This document shows positions 52,893 through 64,000 of a DNA stretch of 64,000 nucleotides, piece by piece (the first letter of the stretch is position 1; the number at the start of each line of letters is the position of its first letter). The DNA comes from Lysobacteraceae bacterium NML95-0200 (GTDB taxonomy: Bacteria; Pseudomonadota; Gammaproteobacteria; Xanthomonadales; Xanthomonadaceae): contig NWQQ01000009.1 in assembly GCA_002798255.1 (NCBI GenBank), positions 1 to 64,000 of the forward strand, read 5' to 3'. Under the pieces are notes generated by a model that was not told where the DNA came from, did no database searches, and worked only from the letters and a program-made list of their open reading frames with translations. The translations under genes and the position numbers were made by a program.

Positions 52893-54578
52893 TTACTCGC
52901 CCTTGCCGAGCTGCTCGCGCAGCAGCGCACCCAGCTGGGTGGTGCCGCTGGCAACTTCCGCATTGCTGCGGTTGTATTCGGCCAGGGTTTCGTTCATTTC
53001 GTCCTGATCCTTGGCGCGGATGGAGAGCTGCACCACCCGGCTCTTGCGATCGGTGCCGATAATCTTGGCTTCCACTTCGTCACCGGCCTTCAGCACATGC
53101 GAGGCATCGTCCACGCGGTCAACCGAGATGTCGCGGGCGGCCAGATAGCCTTCCACGCCATCAGCCAGCTCAACCACGGCGCCCTTGGCATCGACTTCCT
53201 TCACCGTGCCCTTGACCACCGAGCCACGGGTATTAGAGGCCTGGAACTGACCCATCGGGTCTTGCTCCAGCTGCTTGACGCCGAGGCTGATGCGCTCGCG
53301 TTCGGGGTCAACGGCCAGCACCACGGCCTGCACGGTATCGCCCTTCTTGTAGTTGCGCGCCAAGTCTTCGCCATTGGTATTCCAGCTGAGGTCGGACAGG
53401 TGCACCAGACCATCAATGCCGCCTTCCAGGCCGATGAAGATGCCGAAGTCGGTAATCGACTTGATTTGACCTTCCACCTTGTCACCCTTCTTGTGGGTGG
53501 CCGCGAAGGTTTCCCACGGATTGCTGGAGACCTGCTTCATGCCCAGCGAGATGCGGCGACGCTCTTCATCCACGTCCAGCACCATCACTTCGACTTCGTC
53601 ACCGACCTGCACCACCTTGGAGGGGTTGACGTTCTTGTTGGTCCAGTCCATTTCCGAAACGTGCACCAAGCCTTCAACGCCAGCTTCGATTTCAACGAAG
53701 GCGCCGTAATCGGTGACGTTGGACACCTTGCCGAAGGCACGGGTATTGGCCGGATAGCGGCGGGAAATATTGTCCCACGGGTCCTCGCCCATCTGTTTGA
53801 GGCCGAGGCTGACGCGGTTGCGCTCGCGGTCGTACTTCAGCACGCGTACATCCAGCTCCTGGCCGACTTCGACCACTTCGGAGGGATGACGCACGCGCTT
53901 CCAGGCCATGTCGGTGATGTGCAGCAGGCCGTCGATACCACCGAGGTCCACGAATGCGCCGTAATCGGTGAGGTTCTTGACCACACCCTTGAGCTTGGCG
54001 CCTTCCACCAGCTTCTCCATCAGCGCCTCGCGCTCTTCGGAATGCTCGGTTTCCACCACGGCACGGCGGCTGACCACCACGTTGTTGCGCTTGCGGTCAA
54101 GTTTGATGAGCTTGAATTCCAGCTCCTTGCCTTCCAGGTACACCGGGTCGCGCACCGGGCGCACATCCACCAGCGAACCGGGCAGGAAGGCGCGGACTTC
54201 CTTGATATCGACGGTGAAACCACCCTTGACCTTGCCGCTGATGCGGCCGGTGATGATTTCGCCTTTCTCCAGGGCAGCTTCCAGCTCGTCCCAGACCATC
54301 GCGCGCTTGGCTTTTTCGCGCGAAAGCACGGTTTCACCAAAGCCGTTTTCAATCGAGTCCAGCGCCACCTTTACTTCGTCGCCGATGCCCACATCGATTT
54401 CGCCGGCTTCGTTCCGGAACTGTTCGATCGGCACGATGCCTTCGGACTTCAGCCCGGCATTGATGACCACCACATCATTGGTGACGGCAACGACGGTACC
54501 GGTCACGATGGCACCGGGCTTCAGCTTGGCCAGTTGCTGCTGGCTCTGTTCAAACAGTTCGGCAAATGATTCAGTCAT
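52893..54578 (-). CDS. rpsA: 30S ribosomal protein S1
   Basis: 561 residues with six S1 repeats, usual for proteobacterial S1 (557 in E. coli). Repeat signatures such as [40 protein letters not shown] and [21 protein letters not shown] are visible. It binds mRNA and the 30S subunit to start translation. Start [12 protein letters not shown] is typical. Gene order cmk-rpsA-ihfB is conserved. Confidence 0.97.
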
Positions 54579-54741
54579 TTCTATTCTCTAAGGTTAATCT
54601 TCAGAGCAGGTGCCTACCGCTTTGCATCTGCTCCACCCGTTTGTCGGCGCGGGCGGGATTGCCCATTGGCCGTGAGTGTTGAAGTGGATTGACCGCAGGC
54701 TTGTCACCTGCGGGGCGGGTTCTGCTGGATGGGCTTGCCGC

Positions 54742-55458
54742 TCAGGACGCTTCCGGCATCAGGCCGGACTTCTCCACGAGCGCCAGCACTTGCGCCACCA
54801 CCGTATCAATCGCCACACCGGTGGTGTCGATGGACACCGCATCGGTGGCAGGTTTCAATGGTGAAAGCGACCGACTGGCATCGCGCGCGTCACGGGCAAC
54901 AATCTCGCCCAGCAGGCTGTCGAGGTTAACCCAAACCCCTTTTTGCATCAACTGTTTATACCGCCTATCCGCGCGCTCCTCGGCACTGGCGGTCAAAAAC
55001 ACCTTGCAAAAGGCATCCGGAAAGATGACGGTGCCCATATCGCGGCCATCAGCGACCAACCCCGGCGCTATCCGGAAATCATGCTGCAGCTGCACCAATG
55101 CCGCACGCACCCCCGCCATCGAAGCGATTGCAGAAGCGGCAGCGCCTGTCGTTTCCAGCCGCAATTCATCGGTGACATCCTCGCCATTGACCCATACACG
55201 CGCCTCCCCCCTGGCATCATCAGCAAAGCGGATTTGTGTGCGGCGCGCGCAGGCTTCAACGGCTTGCACATCCCCCAGGTCAATTCCCTGCCTCATGGCA
55301 GAAACACCGACCGCCCGGTACAGTGCGCCAGAGTCCAGATAATGCCAGCCCAGATGCTGAGCCACACGGCGGCTGATGGTGCCCTTGCCGGAGCCGGAAG
55401 GCCCGTCAATGGCTAATACGGGAATGGGATTGCGAAAAAGCGGTACGTCTTGATTCAT
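54742..55458 (-). CDS. cmk: cytidylate kinase
   Basis: 238 residues. It phosphorylates CMP and dCMP. P-loop [18 protein letters not shown], then [16 protein letters not shown], and [15 protein letters not shown] followed by [16 protein letters not shown], all typical. It heads the minus-strand run cmk-rpsA-ihfB-lapB-GT4-epimerase-galU. The 163 bases to rpsA hold no gene. Confidence 0.95.
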
Positions 55459-55543
55459 CTGCCAAGTTTAGCGGCTGCCGCCTCGCATGGGCACTGCATT
55501 CGGTCAGAAACATATTGCACTCGATAGGGGGTGTGCAAAGCGG

Positions 55544-56600
55544 ATGAGAAGAGCATCTTTGGGGTATGGAGTCAAAGGGCTCAGGGATGTGAGGCGCTAC
55601 GCTGAGCGTATGGACTCCATCAGTCAGACAGCGCCACATCGGCCTCGAGTATTGAATTTCTGGGCAGAGCACGGTTTGGTGGCGGCGGTGGATGTCTTTG
55701 GTGTCAGCCGCCGCACCTTGTACGGGTGGAAGCAGGCATACGGGGGATGCCGGTAACAACATGGCAGCCTTGAACAACCAAAGCCGTGCGCCGTGAATCG
55801 ACACGAACCCCGGGACTGGGATAGCCGGGTGCTGGCGCATCTGATCTGGCTGCGGGGCCAGTACCCGGTGCTGGGCTTTGAGAAGCTGCGCTTTTTCTGG
55901 CCGACTGGTGCGAGCCGCGCGAGCTGACTTGTCCCAGCGTAGTACCCTACGCCGCCCGGCCAAGAGCGATAACCACCTGAAGCTGGTCAAACATCGCCCC
56001 ACATCGAGTTCCCGCGTGAGGGCTCAGGGGCAACGCAAACCCAAGGGCTACAGCCCCAAGGCACCCGGTGAGTGCGTTGGCGTGGACACCATCGAAATCC
56101 ACGACAGTGACATCTACAGCGGCCTGCGCCGTTACGTCGTGACTTTCAAGGACATGCACAGCCACTTTGCCCTGAGTGTAGCCGTGCCCAGCAAGCGCGC
56201 CAAGCATACTGCCAAACTCTGGCACATCACCCGCGCCTGCCATCCCTTCAAGCCCCAGTGCGTGCTCTCGGAAAATGGCAGCGAGTTCAAGGCCGAGCTC
56301 CTCCAGATTGTACTCGATGACGGCGCCGTGCGCTGGCTGACATACCCCAAGTGTCCCAAGATGAACTCCCATGCCGAGCGATTCAACCGCACCCTCCAGG
56401 AGGAATTCATCGAGTTCCACAACGACTTGTTGCTCCAGGACATCAAAGCCTTCAACAATCAAGTTGCTTGATTACCTCATCTGGTTCAACGAATCCAAAC
56501 CCCGCTACGCCCTCGGATTACGTTCCCCCCATGCAGTTCCTCGCAGACGAGCACCAGTGCGATATGTATTGGCAGGATACAACAACTTGATTGCACTCAA
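55544..56600 (+). pseudogene. broken integrase-core transposase (IS481-like)
   Basis: The N-terminal part from 55544 (MRRASLGYGVKGLRDVRRYA, then VFGVSRRTLYGWKQAY) is a helix-turn-helix start. It stops at about 55756. Further pieces appear in other frames. The catalytic part from about 56010 reads KGYSPKAPGECVGVDTIEIH (first Asp), VLSENGSEF (where related proteins have TDNGSEF, so the second Asp is lost) and HAERFNRTLQEEFIEF (Glu). A last shift at about 56460 separates [18 protein letters not shown]. Several frameshifts and a lost catalytic residue make it dead. No terminal repeats found. Confidence 0.8.
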
Positions 56601-56660
56601 GGTTACTGCTACCATATGCGGCTACATTACTTTTCCACTTTTCGCCATCAGAGGTTTATC

Positions 56661-56786
56661 ATGAAGGTCCTGTCCTCCCTGAAGTCGGCGAAGGCCCGTC
56701 ACCGCGACTGCAAAGTCGTCCGCCGTCGCGGCAAGGTCTTCGTGATTTGCAAGTCCAATCCACGTTTCAAGGCGCGTCAGCGTTAA
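56661..56786 (+). CDS. rpmJ: 50S ribosomal protein L36, zinc-ligand-poor (C-minus) form
   Basis: 41 residues beginning [20 protein letters not shown] and ending [17 protein letters not shown] lies just upstream. L36 of the standard form has a CxxC...CxxxxH zinc site. Here only Cys17 and Cys30 remain, so this is the alternative form seen in YkgO/RpmJ2 and as the usual L36 in Xanthomonas. A terminator follows closely. It lies between a dead transposase and the CRISPR array. Confidence 0.93.
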
Positions 56787-56820
56787 GAAGCCTTGGCGCT
56801 TGCCTAAGCAACTGGAACGA

Positions 56821-56846
56821 AAAACCGCCGCAAGGCGGTTTTTTAT
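56821..56846 (+). terminator. Rho-independent terminator after rpmJ
   Basis: AACCGCC-GCAA-GGCGGTT with flanking A-run and T-run (TTTTTTA). The A/T ends allow it to stop transcripts from both sides, including any that run out of the distal end of the CRISPR array. Confidence 0.92.
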
Positions 56847-56913
56847 CGTCAAAAGTGGTGCCCTCACAAAGCGGGCATAGTGGTCTGTCCATGTGCACCA
56901 GAGCAGCAGAAGG

Positions 56914-59900
56914 GTTTCAACACGCGTGCCCGCGCAAGGCGGGCATACACGTGACGGGTGAAGCTGCTTGACGGCGAAGGCTTCAACTCACGTGCCCGCA
57001 CGAGGCGGGCACGTATAACCACATCACAAAGTGATGCAAAAGAGCAGTTTCAACTCACGTGCCCGCATGAGGCGGGCACCTGGATGCGCGCGCGGCCGAG
57101 CGTTTCCGTGGGTTTCAACTCACGTGCCCGCATGAGGCGGGCACAACCGTACCATCACGGAAGTTCACGCCATTGAAGTCGTTTCAACTCACGTGCCCGC
57201 ATGAGGCGGGCACAACCGTACCATCACGGAAGTTCACGCCATTGAAGTCGTTTCAACTCACGTGCCCGCATGAGGCGGGCACAGCTGGCCGTGGCACACC
57301 GACAACGTGCATGGGCGTTTCAACTCACGTGCCCGCATGAGGCGGGCACTCACGCGCCACTGCGGCCAGGTCAATCACCGGCCAGTTTCAACTCACGTGC
57401 CCGCATGAGGCGGGCACGCCGGTAATTAATGTTTTAGGTTCAGTGATATATGTTTCAACTCACGTGCCCGCATGAGGCGGGCACTCGGGCTGTCCGGGGC
57501 GCGGAGCGAGGATCTAGCCAGTTTCAACTCACGTGCCCGCATGAGGCGGGCACCGCGAGCACCTCGTTTACACGGCTCAAAGCCACCGTTTCAACTCACG
57601 TGCCCGCATGAGGCGGGCACTCGACCCGCAAATCGACATCTGGGCGGTGGCAAAACGTTTCAACTCACGTGCCCGCATGAGGCGGGCACGCAATGACCGG
57701 CAATCTGCCGCGCAACGCATGGAGTTTCAACTCACGTGCCCGCATGAGGCGGGCACTCCATGTGTCCGCTGCGGTTGCCGCCGTGACGGGTTTCAACTCA
57801 CGTGCCCGCATGAGGCGGGCACTTGCACGCGTGCAAACTCTGAATGCAGGTTATTAAAGTTTCAACTCACGTGCCCGCACGAGGCGGGCACCTTCAAGGA
57901 GCGCCAGCGCCTGTTCAAGGTGCCGCGGTTTCAACTCACGTGCCCGCACGAGGCGGGCACCGGACCGCTGGCAGATTTACCCCGAGTACCGCAAGTTTCA
58001 ACTCACGTGCCCGCACGAGGCGGGCACCGGGCGGCAGGTCAGCAAGGAGCGCAGGCGGCTTGCGTTTCAACTCACGTGCCCGCACGAGGCGGGCACTCGC
58101 TGTCACGCTGGGCAGCGGATGTGCGCGGGGTGTTTCAACTCACGTGCCCGCACGAGGCGGGCACGATGCCTCGGTGGATAGCCTCAGCCCGACCGAGCGT
58201 TTCAACTCACGTGCCCGCACGAGGCGGGCACACCTGTCTGCCGTGGAGGTGCTGGGAAATGCCTGGTTTCAACTCACGTGCCCGCACGAGGCGGGCACTT
58301 GCCATCCATGCGCCCCGGCGTAATCAGGTCACGTTTCAACTCACGTGCCCGCACGAGGCGGGCACCGCCAGCCAGACCCGCGCTTGTGTTTGCAGATGAG
58401 TTTCAACTCACGTGCCCGCACGAGGCGGGCACAATCGGCTGACGGCTTGAACCATTCCGGCACGCCAGTTTCAACTCACGTGCCCGCACGAGGCGGGCAC
58501 TGGGCGTGGTGGCCGACGTGCCAAAATTTTGTGACGTTTCAACTCACGTGCCCGCACGAGGCGGGCACGCACCGCTGACGGCTGGGGCGAACCCGGCAGC
58601 GAGTTTCAACTCACGTGCCCGCACGAGGCGGGCACCCGCAGGTGCGGGGACTATCACAACCGTTTCCCTCGTTTCAACTCACGTGCCCGCACGAGGCGGG
58701 CACCCGGGACAAACCCCAGCCCCATGTCCCGGCAGCGTTTCAACTCACGTGCCCGCACGAGGCGGGCACGCATGGCGCACGAGGCGTACAAGTTTTGGAC
58801 GGGTGTTTCAACTCACGTGCCCGCACGAGGCGGGCACCTTCGCCGTCAAGCAGTTTCACGCGCCAGCTATAGTTTCAACTCACGTGCCCGCACGAGGCGG
58901 GCACTGCGCGGCAAAGCCATCGAGGAGTCGCTCTATGCCTGTTTCAACTCACGTGCCCGCACGAGGCGGGCACTCGATCCACTCCTGCATCTCTGGATCG
59001 GTCTTGGCGTTTCAACTCACGTGCCCGCACGAGGCGGGCACTGTTGCGGCGGGAACAGCCCCTTGACCTGCACAACGTTTCAACTCACGTGCCCGCACGA
59101 GGCGGGCACACAAACTCGTCGAGACTATTACCTACGACGACGTGTTTCAACTCACGTGCCCGCACGAGGCGGGCACTCCACGGGCGGCAATGGGATATAT
59201 ATCTCGCCATTGTTTCAACTCACGTGCCCGCACGAGGCGGGCACTCGCACGATTTTTGTCCTATCGTGCGAGAGGTGTGTGTTTCAACTCACGTGCCCGC
59301 ACGAGGCGGGCACGCCTTCCTGGCCAAGCACTACACTGGCGTGATCGGTTTCAACTCACGTGCCCGCACGAGGCGGGCACGCCTTCCTGGCCAAGCACTA
59401 CACTGGCGTGATCGGTTTCAACTCACGTGCCCGCACGAGGCGGGCACGCTGCTGATACGCGAGGGACGGCACACGCTGGATGTTTCAACTCACGTGCCCG
59501 CACGAGGCGGGCACTCGACAACATCTCACGGCAGTTATTTACCATGTCGTTTCAACTCACGTGCCCGCACGAGGCGGGCACTCATTCCCGGCGACCAGGC
59601 GCTTGCGCATCTGGAAGTTTCAACTCACGTGCCCGCACGAGGCGGGCACCCCCTGGTTTTACAGCAGTAAAAAGCGCACTGCGTTTCAACTCACGTGCCC
59701 GCACGAGGCGGGCACCAGGCCGCCTTGTTCATCATCGGCGGCTTGAGCGGTTTCAACTCACGTGCCCGCACGAGGCGGGCACCCAACTCGGCATCAGGGA
59801 GGACTTCAGGTGGCCGGGTTTCAACTCACGTGCCCGCACGAGGCGGGCACGCCATCCGGCAAAACGTCAGGAAATGCCCGGCCAGTTTCAACTCACGTGC

Positions 59901-62900
59901 CCGCACGAGGCGGGCACGGGTTGCCGATGATATAGCGGCCCGTGGTGTCCTTCAGTTTCAACTCACGTGCCCGCACGAGGCGGGCACCTGTCCTCAAGCT
60001 CCCGAACCTCGTCCCGAGTCAGTTTCAACTCACGTGCCCGCACGAGGCGGGCACTTGAGCTGCTAAAGCTGTTGTAGCTTTTGGGCGGTTTCAACTCACG
60101 TGCCCGCACGAGGCGGGCACCTTTTGAGTCTTGGAGCTTGACCCGCCATTTGTAGTTTCAACTCACGTGCCCGCACGAGGCGGGCACGTTTGCGGCCTAT
60201 CGACACAATGGTCAAACTCAAGTTTCAACTCACGTGCCCGCACGAGGCGGGCACAGCGTTTGCAGCTCAATCATGATTTTTGCCCACAAAGTTTCAACTC
60301 ACGTGCCCGCACGAGGCGGGCACTAGTTGACCGTGTCATTTCTGCCGTTGGCACACAGTTTCAACTCACGTGCCCGCACGAGGCGGGCACTGCTCACGGT
60401 TGCGGAAAAGGTAGGCAGCCATCGGTTTCAACTCACGTGCCCGCACGAGGCGGGCACTGATGACTGCGCCGCAGCTCTCCGAGTATCTGGGTTTCAACTC
60501 ACGTGCCCGCACGAGGCGGGCACGCATTGTGAAAGTGAGTCTCGGCGATAGCCTTGGCGTTTCAACTCACGTGCCCGCACGAGGCGGGCACATGCCTCGT
60601 AACGGGTGATTTCGCCAATCAGCGAGTTTCAACTCACGTGCCCGCACGAGGCGGGCACGCTCAAATTGCGCCTAATATCCAGTGGCTGGACAGTTTCAAC
60701 TCACGTGCCCGCACGAGGCGGGCACTGATGGTGATGGTGCGTCCTGCGCCCGAGCCACTGTTTCAACTCACGTGCCCGCACGAGGCGGGCACTCACGCCA
60801 ATGGCTGTTGCGCGGGCAGCATCCGGTTTCAACTCACGTGCCCGCACGAGGCGGGCACGCTGGTTATCTACGCAGCCAGCGCCGCGACACTGGTTTCAAC
60901 TCACGTGCCCGCACGAGGCGGGCACCGCTCCACACCTTGGCTTTCTTCACGCACGATACAGTTTCAACTCACGTGCCCGCACGAGGCGGGCACGGCTTCT
61001 TCCCGGTGCGTATGGCAGGCGTTCTCGAAGTTTCAACTCACGTGCCCGCACGAGGCGGGCACGGGCCGCATTTCCCAGCGTTTGCCGGTTTTGCGGGTTT
61101 CAACTCACGTGCCCGCACGAGGCGGGCACGCCTGGAGGAGCTGGCTCGCGCCGCCGAGAGGAGTTTCAACTCACGTGCCCGCACGAGGCGGGCACATACA
61201 CAACAATCAAGCCTTGACCCGCTCATCACGTTTCAACTCACGTGCCCGCACGAGGCGGGCACGATGAGGTGCGGCAGGCGATGATGGCCGCTATCCAGTT
61301 TCAACTCACGTGCCCGCACGAGGCGGGCACCGAGGCCGTATCTGCCAGCATTGCCCAGGCCATCGTTTCAACTCACGTGCCCGCACGAGGCGGGCACCTC
61401 GTGCCCAAGGTGCTCAGCGCGGTGATGCAGCGTTTCAACTCACGTGCCCGCACGAGGCGGGCACGCGGTTTTACTACCTGCAAAAATTGGCATTCGGTGG
61501 TTTCAACTCACGTGCCCGCACGAGGCGGGCACCATTAGGTTACCCAGCGTTCAGGATATTTAGTGTCGGTTTCAACTCACGTGCCCGCACGAGGCGGGCA
61601 CGCTGTGGATGTGAGGCCAGCAGTCGCATGAGACGTTTCAACTCACGTGCCCGCACGAGGCGGGCACTTGGCGTGGGTGGTAGCGGCTTCTTCGGTCAAG
61701 TGTTTCAACTCACGTGCCCGCACGAGGCGGGCACTCAACGTGTACATGCTCTTCAATGAGGCCACGCAGGTTTCAACTCACGTGCCCGCACGAGGCGGGC
61801 ACTGACCGTGTTTACATAGTCCGATGCGTTTTTGTTGTTTCAACTCACGTGCCCGCACGAGGCGGGCACGCGGCAGCGGATGTGCTGGCGCCAGTAGTCG
61901 TGGGTTTCAACTCACGTGCCCGCACGAGGCGGGCACCCACCGGGTCAGCAGCCGTTGCATCGGACTGCCGGTTTCAACTCACGTGCCCGCACGAGGCGGG
62001 CACTCGGCAATTGCAGCGGCCTGACGCTGACCCCGCAAGTTTCAACTCACGTGCCCGCACGAGGCGGGCACGCGTCAGCATGACCAACGGTGGCGGCATG
62101 TTTACGTTTCAACTCACGTGCCCGCACGAGGCGGGCACTCGCCTAGCTGGCGGCCTTTCTCATAGATGCGCAGTTTCAACTCACGTGCCCGCACGAGGCG
62201 GGCACTTTGTCACCTTCTGTTTTTTGCACGTAGGAAACAGTTTCAACTCACGTGCCCGCACGAGGCGGGCACGTGCCAGCGCCACGGTGTTTTTCAACTT
62301 GGGCGATGTTTCAACTCACGTGCCCGCACGAGGCGGGCACCGAGACAGACAGCCATGCCTACGCCGCGCGGGCAGTTTCAACTCACGTGCCCGCACGAGG
62401 CGGGCACATGATGTCAGCCATGCGCTCGTACTCGGCCCACGGTTTCAACTCACGTGCCCGCACGAGGCGGGCACTCGGCACCTCATCGGTGTTTTTCGGG
62501 CGATTGGCGTTTCAACTCACGTGCCCGCACGAGGCGGGCACGCTCCAAATATTTAACCGCATCCATTGTCACGTCAGTTTCAACTCACGTGCCCGCACGA
62601 GGCGGGCACGTATCGTTTTGCCCGATTACAGTTTCAATCGTGCGTTTCAACTCACGTGCCCGCACGAGGCGGGCACCGGATGCTCTCGCTTATCCGGGAA
62701 GACCTGAAGCGTTTCAACTCACGTGCCCGCACGAGGCGGGCACACATCCATTTGCCAGACAACGGTTAAACCACGAGCGTTTCAACTCACGTGCCCGCAC
62801 GAGGCGGGCACGTGTGTGACGACGTGTTGGTGTGTCGAGCATCGACCGTTTCAACTCACGTGCCCGCACGAGGCGGGCACTGCCCAACATCATGCGTGGC

Positions 62901-63083
62901 CGTTTTGCGGTGCTGGTTTCAACTCACGTGCCCGCACGAGGCGGGCACTCCGTGTGCTGGTCGGCGTATTTGCCACCGTTAAGTTTCAACTCACGTGCCC
63001 GCACGAGGCGGGCACGGCGGTGGGGTCTGCCCGCCGGTGCCGCCGGGCGAGTTTCAACTCACGTGCCCGCACGAGGCGGGCAC
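56914..63083 (-). CRISPR. large CRISPR array, about 92 repeats of 33 bp and 91 spacers
   Basis: I counted about 92 repeat starts by eye, with a mean unit of about 67 bp and spacers of roughly 33-36 bp. The first two repeats on the low-coordinate side (56914, 56980) are degenerate; the last (63051-63083) is perfect. Read on the minus strand, the repeat starts GTGCCCGC, has a 5-base loop CTCGT, then GCGGGCAC (a perfect 8-bp stem), and ends in GTTGAAAC. This end is typical of the 5' handle of type I-C and some type III crRNAs; the 33-bp length suits I-C better. Degenerate repeats mark the old end, so the leader should be at the high-coordinate side and transcription on the minus strand. Twelve repeats from 57047 to 57822 have loop CTCAT instead. 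Two spacers are duplicated in adjacent units. No cas gene is in the window. Confidence 0.97.
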
Positions 63084-63300
63084 GGCCTCTTGTATAACCC
63101 AAGCAACACAAGGCCTAAAGCATCCTGGTTCGCTAACAGCATCACAAAAGACATTCCGCAAGTGTAAGGCAACTTCTTCAGCCACACTTATCTCCTCCAA
63201 CCATCTGTTTTCAAAGAGCTTGAAGAAATCGCTAAGCTGCCCATATTTTCATGAGAACCACAGATTAGCGATTCATACAATCAACGTATTCTGAAACACA
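63084..63300 (-). promoter_or_regulatory. probable CRISPR leader
   Basis: AT-richer sequence without a gene lies directly beside the last perfect repeat, on the side expected from repeat orientation and from decay at the other end. The first ~30 bases contain an imperfect dyad (GGCC...TTGT / ACAA-GGCC). A 9-bp inverted repeat AATCGCTAA / TTAGCGATT lies at 63227-63235 and 63265-63273. No promoter hexamers can be named with confidence. Confidence 0.6.
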
Positions 63301-63392
63301 TCCACCGCTGCCTTCGCACCGTGATGCCCCACCTTCCCCCGCCATTTACTATCCAGATGGTGACCTACCACCTTTAGCCCCACCAATTAAAT

Positions 63393-63551
63393 CTAGATGT
63401 AGTTTCTCAACACGTTGTACCCCACAAAGCCCAGCCGGGTCGCTGGTGGCAAGTTCTCCATGGCCGAGTGAGGTCGATGGAAGTTGTAATGATGCATCCA
63501 AGGTGCCAGCTCCTGGGCGCGATGCGCTGAGCTGGGATACCGATACGCATA
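63393..63551 (-). pseudogene. C-terminal remnant of an IS481-type transposase
   Basis: Read on the minus strand it encodes AQELAPWMHHYNFHRPHSAM then ENLPPATRLGF and ends NVLRNYI with a stop at 63393-63395. The HHYNFHRPHSA block is the conserved end of IS481-family transposases. The N-terminal and catalytic parts are missing, cut by the next element at about 63552. The stretch 63301-63392 shows no recognisable feature. Confidence 0.8.
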
Positions 63552-64000
63552 GAGCGTGTTATGAACTTTGTGCCAATCGAATCAAGGGCATGGCATTGGG
63601 TAACATGAGAATGGCGAAGACCACAAAGTGCAATCCCCCCAGTACGTCCGGCAATCGTTCGTAATCACGGGACAGGCGCCTGAAGCGGGCAAGCCAGCCA
63701 AAGCTGCGTTCCACTACCCAGCGCCTTGGCAGCAGAACAAACCCCTTTTTCGCTTCGCGCAACTTCACCACCTCCAGGGCAATGCCGTTTTGCGCCGCCG
63801 CATCCCGGGCTTTTTGCCCCGTGTAGCCTTGATCTGCCCAAGCCTTGCGCACGCGCTTTCCCGTTGCCTGTTGCACCGCCTGGCACAGCGCATCGACATC
63901 GCGCTCCTGGGTGTTGGCGGGCGTGACATGCAAGGCCAGCAAATGCCCCAGCGTGTCCACAGCCATGTGTACCTTGGAGCCTTTGCGGCGCTTGTAGCCG
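63552..64000 (-). mobile_element. IS5-family insertion sequence, partial (continues past window end)
   Basis: The element begins at about 63552 (GAGCGTGTTATGAAC, an end resembling IS5-type terminal repeats), where the IS481 remnant is interrupted. Its transposase runs off the window. It is a different IS5 subgroup from the copy at 36915. Confidence 0.8.
63559..64000 (-). CDS. IS5-family transposase, C-terminal part, truncated by window edge
   Basis: The frame is open to the window end: [20 protein letters not shown], then [16 protein letters not shown] (second catalytic Asp) and [20 protein letters not shown] (catalytic Glu block). It ends LIRLAQSS with a stop at 63559-63561. The first catalytic Asp is in the AVDT region or just before, near the edge. 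Intact as far as visible. Confidence 0.88.

What the first reader, a model, noticed from the sequence alone, without database searches (positions are those of the whole stretch)
56914..63083. Very long CRISPR array (about 91 spacers) with no cas genes in view
About 92 near-identical 33-bp repeats were counted directly. Such a long, well-kept array with clean repeats up to the leader suggests a system that was recently active. The repeat hairpin and GTTGAAAC end point to type I-C or possibly type III, but no cas gene lies within the window. Either the cas genes start beyond 64000 behind the IS elements, or the array works in trans.
Basis: partly seen in the sequence, partly recalled or inferred. 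Interest (0 to 1): 0.75.

Follow-up and report, generated by a model that had tools for sequence, protein, structure and literature searches.

The report
Cas-less sister of a CRISPR array
A long bacterial immune-memory array has lost its neighbouring enzyme genes, but a sister copy elsewhere in the same genome still has the full set and probably serves both arrays; this is a known kind of arrangement, with an odd cluster of memories of the bacterium's own genes at its oldest end.

Summary
The array is real: 92 repeats, 91 spacers (89 distinct), 56914-63083, minus strand, leader at the right. It is type I-C. No cas operon lies in the window, only the last 29 codons of cas2 beside the leader, next to IS-like DNA; contig positions 64000-74000 add none. 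The genome has one Cas8c gene, in a complete I-C operon on contig C9, with its own array (92 repeats to the contig end) and a nearly identical leader (95.7% over 279 nt with the cas2 tail). The arrays share no identical spacer; their repeats differ at 3 of 33 positions. The cas2 stub has changed far more than the leader, so the leader is probably still used, served in trans by C9 enzymes (inferred). Three relatives show that the array sits at a rearrangement breakpoint. One spacer has an exact target in a Zot-type gene with the I-C PAM TTC; most other phage-like targets lack TTC. Six of the 19 oldest spacers match the genome's own genes (glutamate dehydrogenase twice, UbiB-type kinase, rhodanese, a polyvalent-protein gene twice), none with TTC; the 72 newer gave one marginal hit. 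Verdict: orphan I-C array, new member of a known kind.

The parts
56914..63083 (-). CRISPR array, 92 repeats / 91 spacers, type I-C
   Evidence: direct count
57859..63083 (-). younger block: 78 identical repeats GTGCCCGCCTCGTGCGGGCACGTGAGTTGAAAC
57047..57822 (-). older block: 12 repeats with A at loop position 12
56914..56946 (-). oldest counted repeat: 2 mismatches to the C9-type repeat, 5 to this array's own repeat
56846..56878 (-). one further very degenerate repeat-like stretch (12 of 33 mismatches), at the left synteny junction
63084..63272 (-). leader, 189 nt, conserved with the leader of the C9 I-C locus
63276..63362 (-). cas2 stub: last 29 codons, 86% identical to C9 Cas2
   Evidence: tblastn; alignment
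63367..63550 (-). short remnant that reads like the end of an IS3-type transposase (my reading of the sequence, no database search)
   Evidence: sequence
63551..64000 (-). part inside the window of an IS5-type insertion sequence (63551-64424 on the contig) with matching 13-nt ends
   Evidence: Pfam DUF4096 and DDE_Tnp_1, ends
61735..61769 (-). spacer 20: exact 35/35 match in a Zot-type gene of relative G006, 5' flank TTC
57892..57927 (-). spacer 77: 1/36 mismatch to the genome's own NAD-glutamate dehydrogenase gene, flank GAG
58165..58198 (-). spacer 73: 2/34 mismatches to the same glutamate dehydrogenase gene, flank TCA
57621..57656 (-). spacer 81: 4/36 mismatches to the genome's own ABC1/UbiB-type kinase gene, flank CCG
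57145..57249 (-). spacers 87 and 88 (identical, with the repeat between them): 2/36 mismatches to an own polyvalent-protein gene, flank GAT
57080..57111 (-). spacer 89: exact 32/32 match to the genome's own rhodanese-domain gene, flank TCA
59918..59954 (-). spacer 47: 1/37 mismatch to major capsid genes of tailed phages, flank mostly TGC

Best explanation
This is a second, cas-less type I-C array that split off by duplication from the ancestor of the genome's complete I-C locus on contig C9. It kept the leader and the tail of cas2; the rest of any cas operon is gone and IS-like DNA now abuts the stub. Its transcript would run leftwards on the minus strand. It is most likely cut by the Cas5c (Cas5d) made from C9, loaded on the C9 Cas5-Cas8c-Cas7 complex, and extended at its leader by the C9 Cas4-Cas1-Cas2. 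Shown: leader and repeat homology, the cas2 stub, a single Cas8c found in the genome, independent spacers, some phage targets. Inferred: transcription, processing, interference and acquisition in trans.
For: One Cas8c gene was found in the genome, inside an operon of open frames cas3-cas5-cas8c-cas7-cas4-cas1-cas2 directly upstream of a leader and array on C9. Leader plus cas2 tail are 95.7% identical over 279 nt. With relative G006 as outgroup, changes private to the window copy are 7 of 91 in the cas2 stub but 2 of 189 in the leader (Fisher p 0.006), whereas C9 and G006 differ at 10 of 91 and 25 of 189: the stub drifts, the leader is kept. The oldest repeat is of the C9 kind (2 mismatches against 5). 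No identical spacer is shared with C9 or C5, but one near-identical pair (window spacer 8, C9 spacer 56) starts at the same target base. Spacer 20 has an exact target with flank TTC, and TTC is an experimentally confirmed I-C PAM in Xanthomonas oryzae (PMC8406640, passages seen). The two repeat hairpins fold alike, -16.9 and -17.2 kcal/mol.
Against: No expression or crRNA data. The two repeats differ at 3 of 33 positions, two of them in the part that should become the crRNA 5' handle (handle length recalled); whether one Cas5 cuts both is untested. At their best hits only 2 of 7 window spacers with phage-like targets show TTC (20 and 71); 24, 46, 47, 55/56 and 64 show TGC, TCC, TGC, GAC and CTC, though these targets are imperfect matches, 1 to 4 mismatches. 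Two looser hits were left out of that count: spacer 91 (7/33, flank ATT) and spacer 50 (9/34, flank CGG). The stub-against-leader test rests on 9 changes. All spacers could have been gained before a cis cas operon was lost.
Confidence: 0.75

Rival explanations
1. A decayed complete second I-C locus: the array had its own cas operon in cis, gained all its spacers with it, and lost it to IS insertion or deletion; now it is a silent relic.
For: The cas2 stub lies in the normal place beside the leader, and IS-like DNA begins right after it. Flank order is rearranged.
Against: The cas2 stub has changed much more than the leader since the two copies split (7/91 against 2/189), which suggests the leader stayed useful after cas2 was lost. 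The 78 leader-side repeats are identical.
Confidence: 0.2
2. The array is exploited by the genome's type III-B complex, not by the I-C complex.
For: A III-B locus with Cmr2, 3, 4, 6 and Csm6-type and Csx1-type proteins is present (Cmr3 is just under its model's cut-off). A III-B system that gives redundancy to a type I-F system is described in the listed title and abstract of PMC5576922 (listing only).
Against: The III-B locus has its own repeat, GTCTTAATCCCCTCAAAGTCGGGGCAGTGAGGGGAC, and its own array. The window leader and repeat match the I-C locus.
Confidence: 0.05
3. The self-matching old spacers make the array a regulator of host metabolism: crRNA with partial or PAM-less matches dampens glutamate dehydrogenase, rhodanese and UbiB-type genes.
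For: Five distinct spacers (six copies) among the oldest 19 match own genes with 0-4 mismatches, and two hit the same glutamate dehydrogenase gene on the same strand. Gene regulation by self-matching or partly matching spacers is reviewed in PMC8616872 (passages seen).
Against: The targets lie inside genes and none has a TTC flank. Tolerated self-derived spacers explain the same data. PMC8616872 quotes self-targeting spacers as 6% of the known pool (its criterion may differ), and here it is 6 of 91.
Confidence: 0.04

Closest known systems
Type I-C CRISPR-Cas locus on contig C9 of the same genome
   Same: leader (95.7% over 279 nt with the cas2 tail), repeat length and stem, hairpin energy, mostly 33-36-nt spacers, array size (92 repeats to the contig end)
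   Different: C9 has the complete cas operon; the repeat differs at 3 of 33 positions; no identical spacers
   Same: its 36 leader-side repeats share two of the three changes that separate the window repeat from C9, and its old end also holds C9-type repeats
   Different: has its cas genes on the same stretch; leader more diverged (23 private changes in 189); 40 repeats
Orphan (isolated) CRISPR arrays, as reviewed in PMC8616872 (passages seen)
   Same: array without adjacent cas operon; some self-matching spacers
   Different: long and clean, with a conserved leader and a traceable cas2 stub; I did not survey how usual that is

Membership tests
Type I-C CRISPR array | repeat and leader homologous to an array beside a cas5c-cas8c-cas7-cas4-cas1-cas2 operon | tested here: met
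Type I-C CRISPR array | adjacent I-C cas operon | tested here: not met
   only the last 29 codons of cas2 in the window and to contig position 74000
Type I-C CRISPR array | TTC PAM on the 5' side of targets | tested here: inconclusive
   2 of 7 window spacers with phage-like targets show TTC at their best hit, including the only exact one; both C9 spacers with hits show TTC
Type I-C CRISPR array | pre-crRNA cut by Cas5c | not testable with these tools
   needs RNA sequencing
Orphan (isolated) CRISPR array | true CRISPR array away from a cas operon of its own type | tested here: met
Orphan (isolated) CRISPR array | matching cas genes elsewhere in the genome | tested here: met
   C9 operon
Type III array | repeat shared with the genome's III-B locus | tested here: not met
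   different repeat

The most novel reading that the evidence does not exclude
The array passed through an early phase in which spacers from the bacterium's own core genes were gained and kept, because the crRNAs could not kill (no TTC flank, or the repeat not yet served by the complex). Those crRNAs now sit on glutamate dehydrogenase, rhodanese and UbiB-type genes as tolerated or even regulatory guides, while a co-ordinated change of repeat near the old end marks the time the array became a defence array.
Probability: 0.06. Interest if true: 0.6.

Novelty: new member of a known kind. Interest (0 to 1): 0.32.

Why it matters
Two long, independently filled arrays with diverged repeats and one cas set in one genome give a natural test of how much repeat change a single I-C machinery tolerates in trans. 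The stub-against-leader contrast is a simple way to tell a living orphan array from a dead one. The concentration of self-matching spacers at the old end, if it holds, records a phase of tolerated self-acquisition.

Tried and rejected
Cas operon hidden beyond 64000: rejected to contig position 74000. The last 12.7 kb of the contig were not searched with all Cas proteins, but the genome-wide searches gave one Cas8c and three Cas1 genes, none on this contig.

Array as a composite transposon: the IS-like DNA on the two sides does not match each other, and the left flank (cmk to an L36-type gene) is native in three relatives, so rejected.

Little or nothing found: Rfam scan of 54000-64000 at gathering scores, 0 matches; plasmid collection, one record, a capsid gene on a Rhizobium plasmid; C5 array end against phages, none; viral-contig pattern scans, 4 of 6 found nothing (76, 77, 79, 81; 78 gave one contig, 80 gave 21). 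The leader pattern was found in none of 59 other genomes, but that pattern is too strict: G006 has a diverged leader. Of two further genus members with distant Cas8c, G009 has a different I-C repeat and the fetched stretch of G016 showed none.

Idea that self targets are followed by repeat-like DNA (the alignments ran from spacer into repeat): dropped as a rule. In the own genome the 18 bases after the five distinct targets agree with the repeat start at 12, 4, 7, 2 and 7 positions (spacers 77, 73, 89, 87, 81); random places in the same loci average 5.1. Only spacer 77 is unusual (0.025% of 4000 random places reach 12) and stays unexplained.

Double change of repeat positions 13 and 23 in both G006 and the window array: seen, no explanation tested.

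Self-match statistic: the cut at spacer 73 was chosen after seeing the data (Fisher p 4e-5 for 6/19 against 0/72; 2e-4 with duplicates removed). Spacers 76-91 were searched with their repeats, 1-76 as joined spacers without 56, a copy of 55, so sensitivity may differ; one search scored 40 candidates, which may be a limit. Spacer 73 was seen first in a locus fetched for spacer 77 and then again. The C9 and C5 spacers were not searched against the whole genome, only against 213,372 bases of it, with no hit at up to 6 mismatches.

Full report
What is there. The minus strand of 56914-63083 carries 92 repeats of 33 bp and 91 spacers of 32-37 nt, 89 of them distinct. Reading from the leader at the right: 78 identical repeats, 12 with one loop change, one with a change near its end, then one that differs at 5 positions. 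A further decayed copy (12 of 33 mismatches) lies at 56846-56878. The repeat folds into an 8-bp stem with a 5-nt loop, -16.9 kcal/mol (z -3.26 against shuffles).

Where the cas genes are. The window is positions 1-64000 of contig C45 (86,678 bases) of a 2.38-Mb genome in 46 contigs. tblastn with the seven Cas proteins of the I-C operon finds in the window only the last 29 residues of Cas2, at 63276-63362, and nothing more to contig position 74000. The genome has three cas1 genes: on C9 in a complete I-C operon cas3-5-8c-7-4-1-2; on C12 in a type I-F locus; on C23 beside cas2 and a type III-B locus. One Cas8c was found. The C9 operon is followed by a leader and 92 repeats that run to the contig end. 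Contig C5 ends in 16 repeats of the same kind and shares the spacer at the break, so the two are probably one array.

Kinship of the two arrays. Leader and cas2 tail are 95.7% identical over 279 nt. The repeats differ at 3 of 33 positions. The oldest window repeat is of the C9 kind (2 mismatches against 5). No identical spacer is shared; one pair (window 8, C9 56) samples the same target from the same first base. With G006 as outgroup the window copy has 7 private changes in 91 positions of the cas2 tail but 2 in 189 of the leader (p 0.006), while C9 and G006 differ at 10 of 91 and 25 of 189. So the stub is drifting and the leader is held. The numbers are small.

How it came to lie here. In three relatives (G006, G001, G010; the three examined) the DNA left of the array (cmk to an L36-type gene) continues into a stretch that is alike in all three, the DNA right of it (a MbnB-type gene cluster) is preceded by another stretch alike in all three, and the right flank is not found in the kilobases fetched beyond the left one. 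In G010 the marker genes lie about 96 kb apart on one contig. Both displaced neighbours exist in this genome, on C42 and C43. The array therefore sits at a rearrangement breakpoint. The C9 locus shares flank sequence upstream of cas3 with the G006 locus, with about 5 kb extra in G006, so C9 is probably the native place.

Relatives. Four of 17 genomes of the genus, this one included, have a Cas8c match. Its array has 36 leader-side repeats that share two of the three changes seen in the window; its old end holds three C9-type repeats and one mixed one. The same double change in two arrays whose leaders are not sisters is unexplained (parallel change or recombination between arrays).

Targets. 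The phage collection gave 8 records for the window array and 3 for the C9 array. An exact 35/35 match of spacer 20 lies in a Zot-type gene of G006 with flank TTC. In 134 viral loci (1.76 Mb, some overlapping), 8 of 197 spacers had hits at 20% mismatch or less, and none of one shuffled set did. Flanks at the best hit: window 24 TGC, 46 TCC, 47 TGC, 55 and 56 (identical) GAC, 71 TTC; C9 12 TTC, C9 20 TTC. Spacer 64 has CTC at a 4-mismatch hit in a family member's genome. TTC is the tested I-C PAM in Xanthomonas oryzae (PMC8406640, passages). The window array is consistent with TTC but does not prove it.

Self matches. Spacers 73 and 77 match one NAD-glutamate dehydrogenase gene (2/34 and 1/36 mismatches), 81 an ABC1/UbiB-type kinase gene (4/36), 87 and 88 (identical) a polyvalent-protein gene (2/36), 89 a rhodanese-domain gene (0/32). 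Flanks are TCA, GAG, CCG, GAT and TCA: none is TTC. Among the 72 newer spacers the only hit outside the arrays was a marginal 25-nt one at E 0.03. Three of these old spacers (77, 81, 89) also account for most of the hits listed when the array was run against 297 genomes of the family, 151 of which had a match. The overall share, 6 of 91, is close to the 6% quoted in PMC8616872 (passages); the clustering at the old end is the odd part and is post hoc. One search for self-targeting and oldest spacers listed two papers, which I did not read.

Mechanism and verdict. Best reading: a duplicated I-C array without cis cas genes, its leader conserved, most likely transcribed leftwards and served by the C9 enzymes. 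Processing, interference and acquisition in trans are inferred. It is a new member of the known class of orphan arrays.

Noticed in passing
G000:C12 (locus L027) and G000:C23 (locus L026): The same genome also has a type I-F locus (cas1, cas2-3, csy1-4) and a type III-B locus with Csm6-type and Csx1-type CARF proteins and its own array, 23 repeats listed.
   Followed up: partly
contig C45 about 64.5-66.6 kb (L024:10518-12609), just outside the window: A Cys-rich, signal-peptide-like small protein gene followed by an MbnB/TglH/ChrH-family gene and a DUF2063 gene: reads like a metal-binding RiPP (bufferin-like, name recalled) cluster.
   Followed up: no
window 55493-56583: About 1.1 kb between cmk and an L36-type ribosomal protein gene (my reading) that three relatives lack; it contains an integrase-core (rve) fragment, so probably an old IS insertion.
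   Followed up: partly
L094 (G006:C15) and window 56914-57012: Two arrays in two species both change from C9-type repeats to repeats with T at positions 13 and 23, leaving only a few old copies at the far end.
   Followed up: partly
window 57892-57927 and L167 near 1501 (minus strand): The own-gene target of spacer 77 is followed by 18 bases of which 12 agree with the repeat start, reached by 0.025% of random places in the same loci.
   Followed up: partly
G000:C5:19995-20027 (L028): A single stray I-C-type repeat without an array around it in the 10 kb fetched.
   Followed up: no
G000:C34:138968 region (L169): Large polyvalent protein gene with PBECR3, ART-PolyVal and LPD3 domains, matched by the duplicated spacers 87 and 88; perhaps on a mobile element.
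   Followed up: no
window 63551-64000: IS5-type element (to 64424 on the contig) with ends AGAGCGTGTTATG, next to a further IS-like remnant and the cas2 stub.
   Followed up: partly
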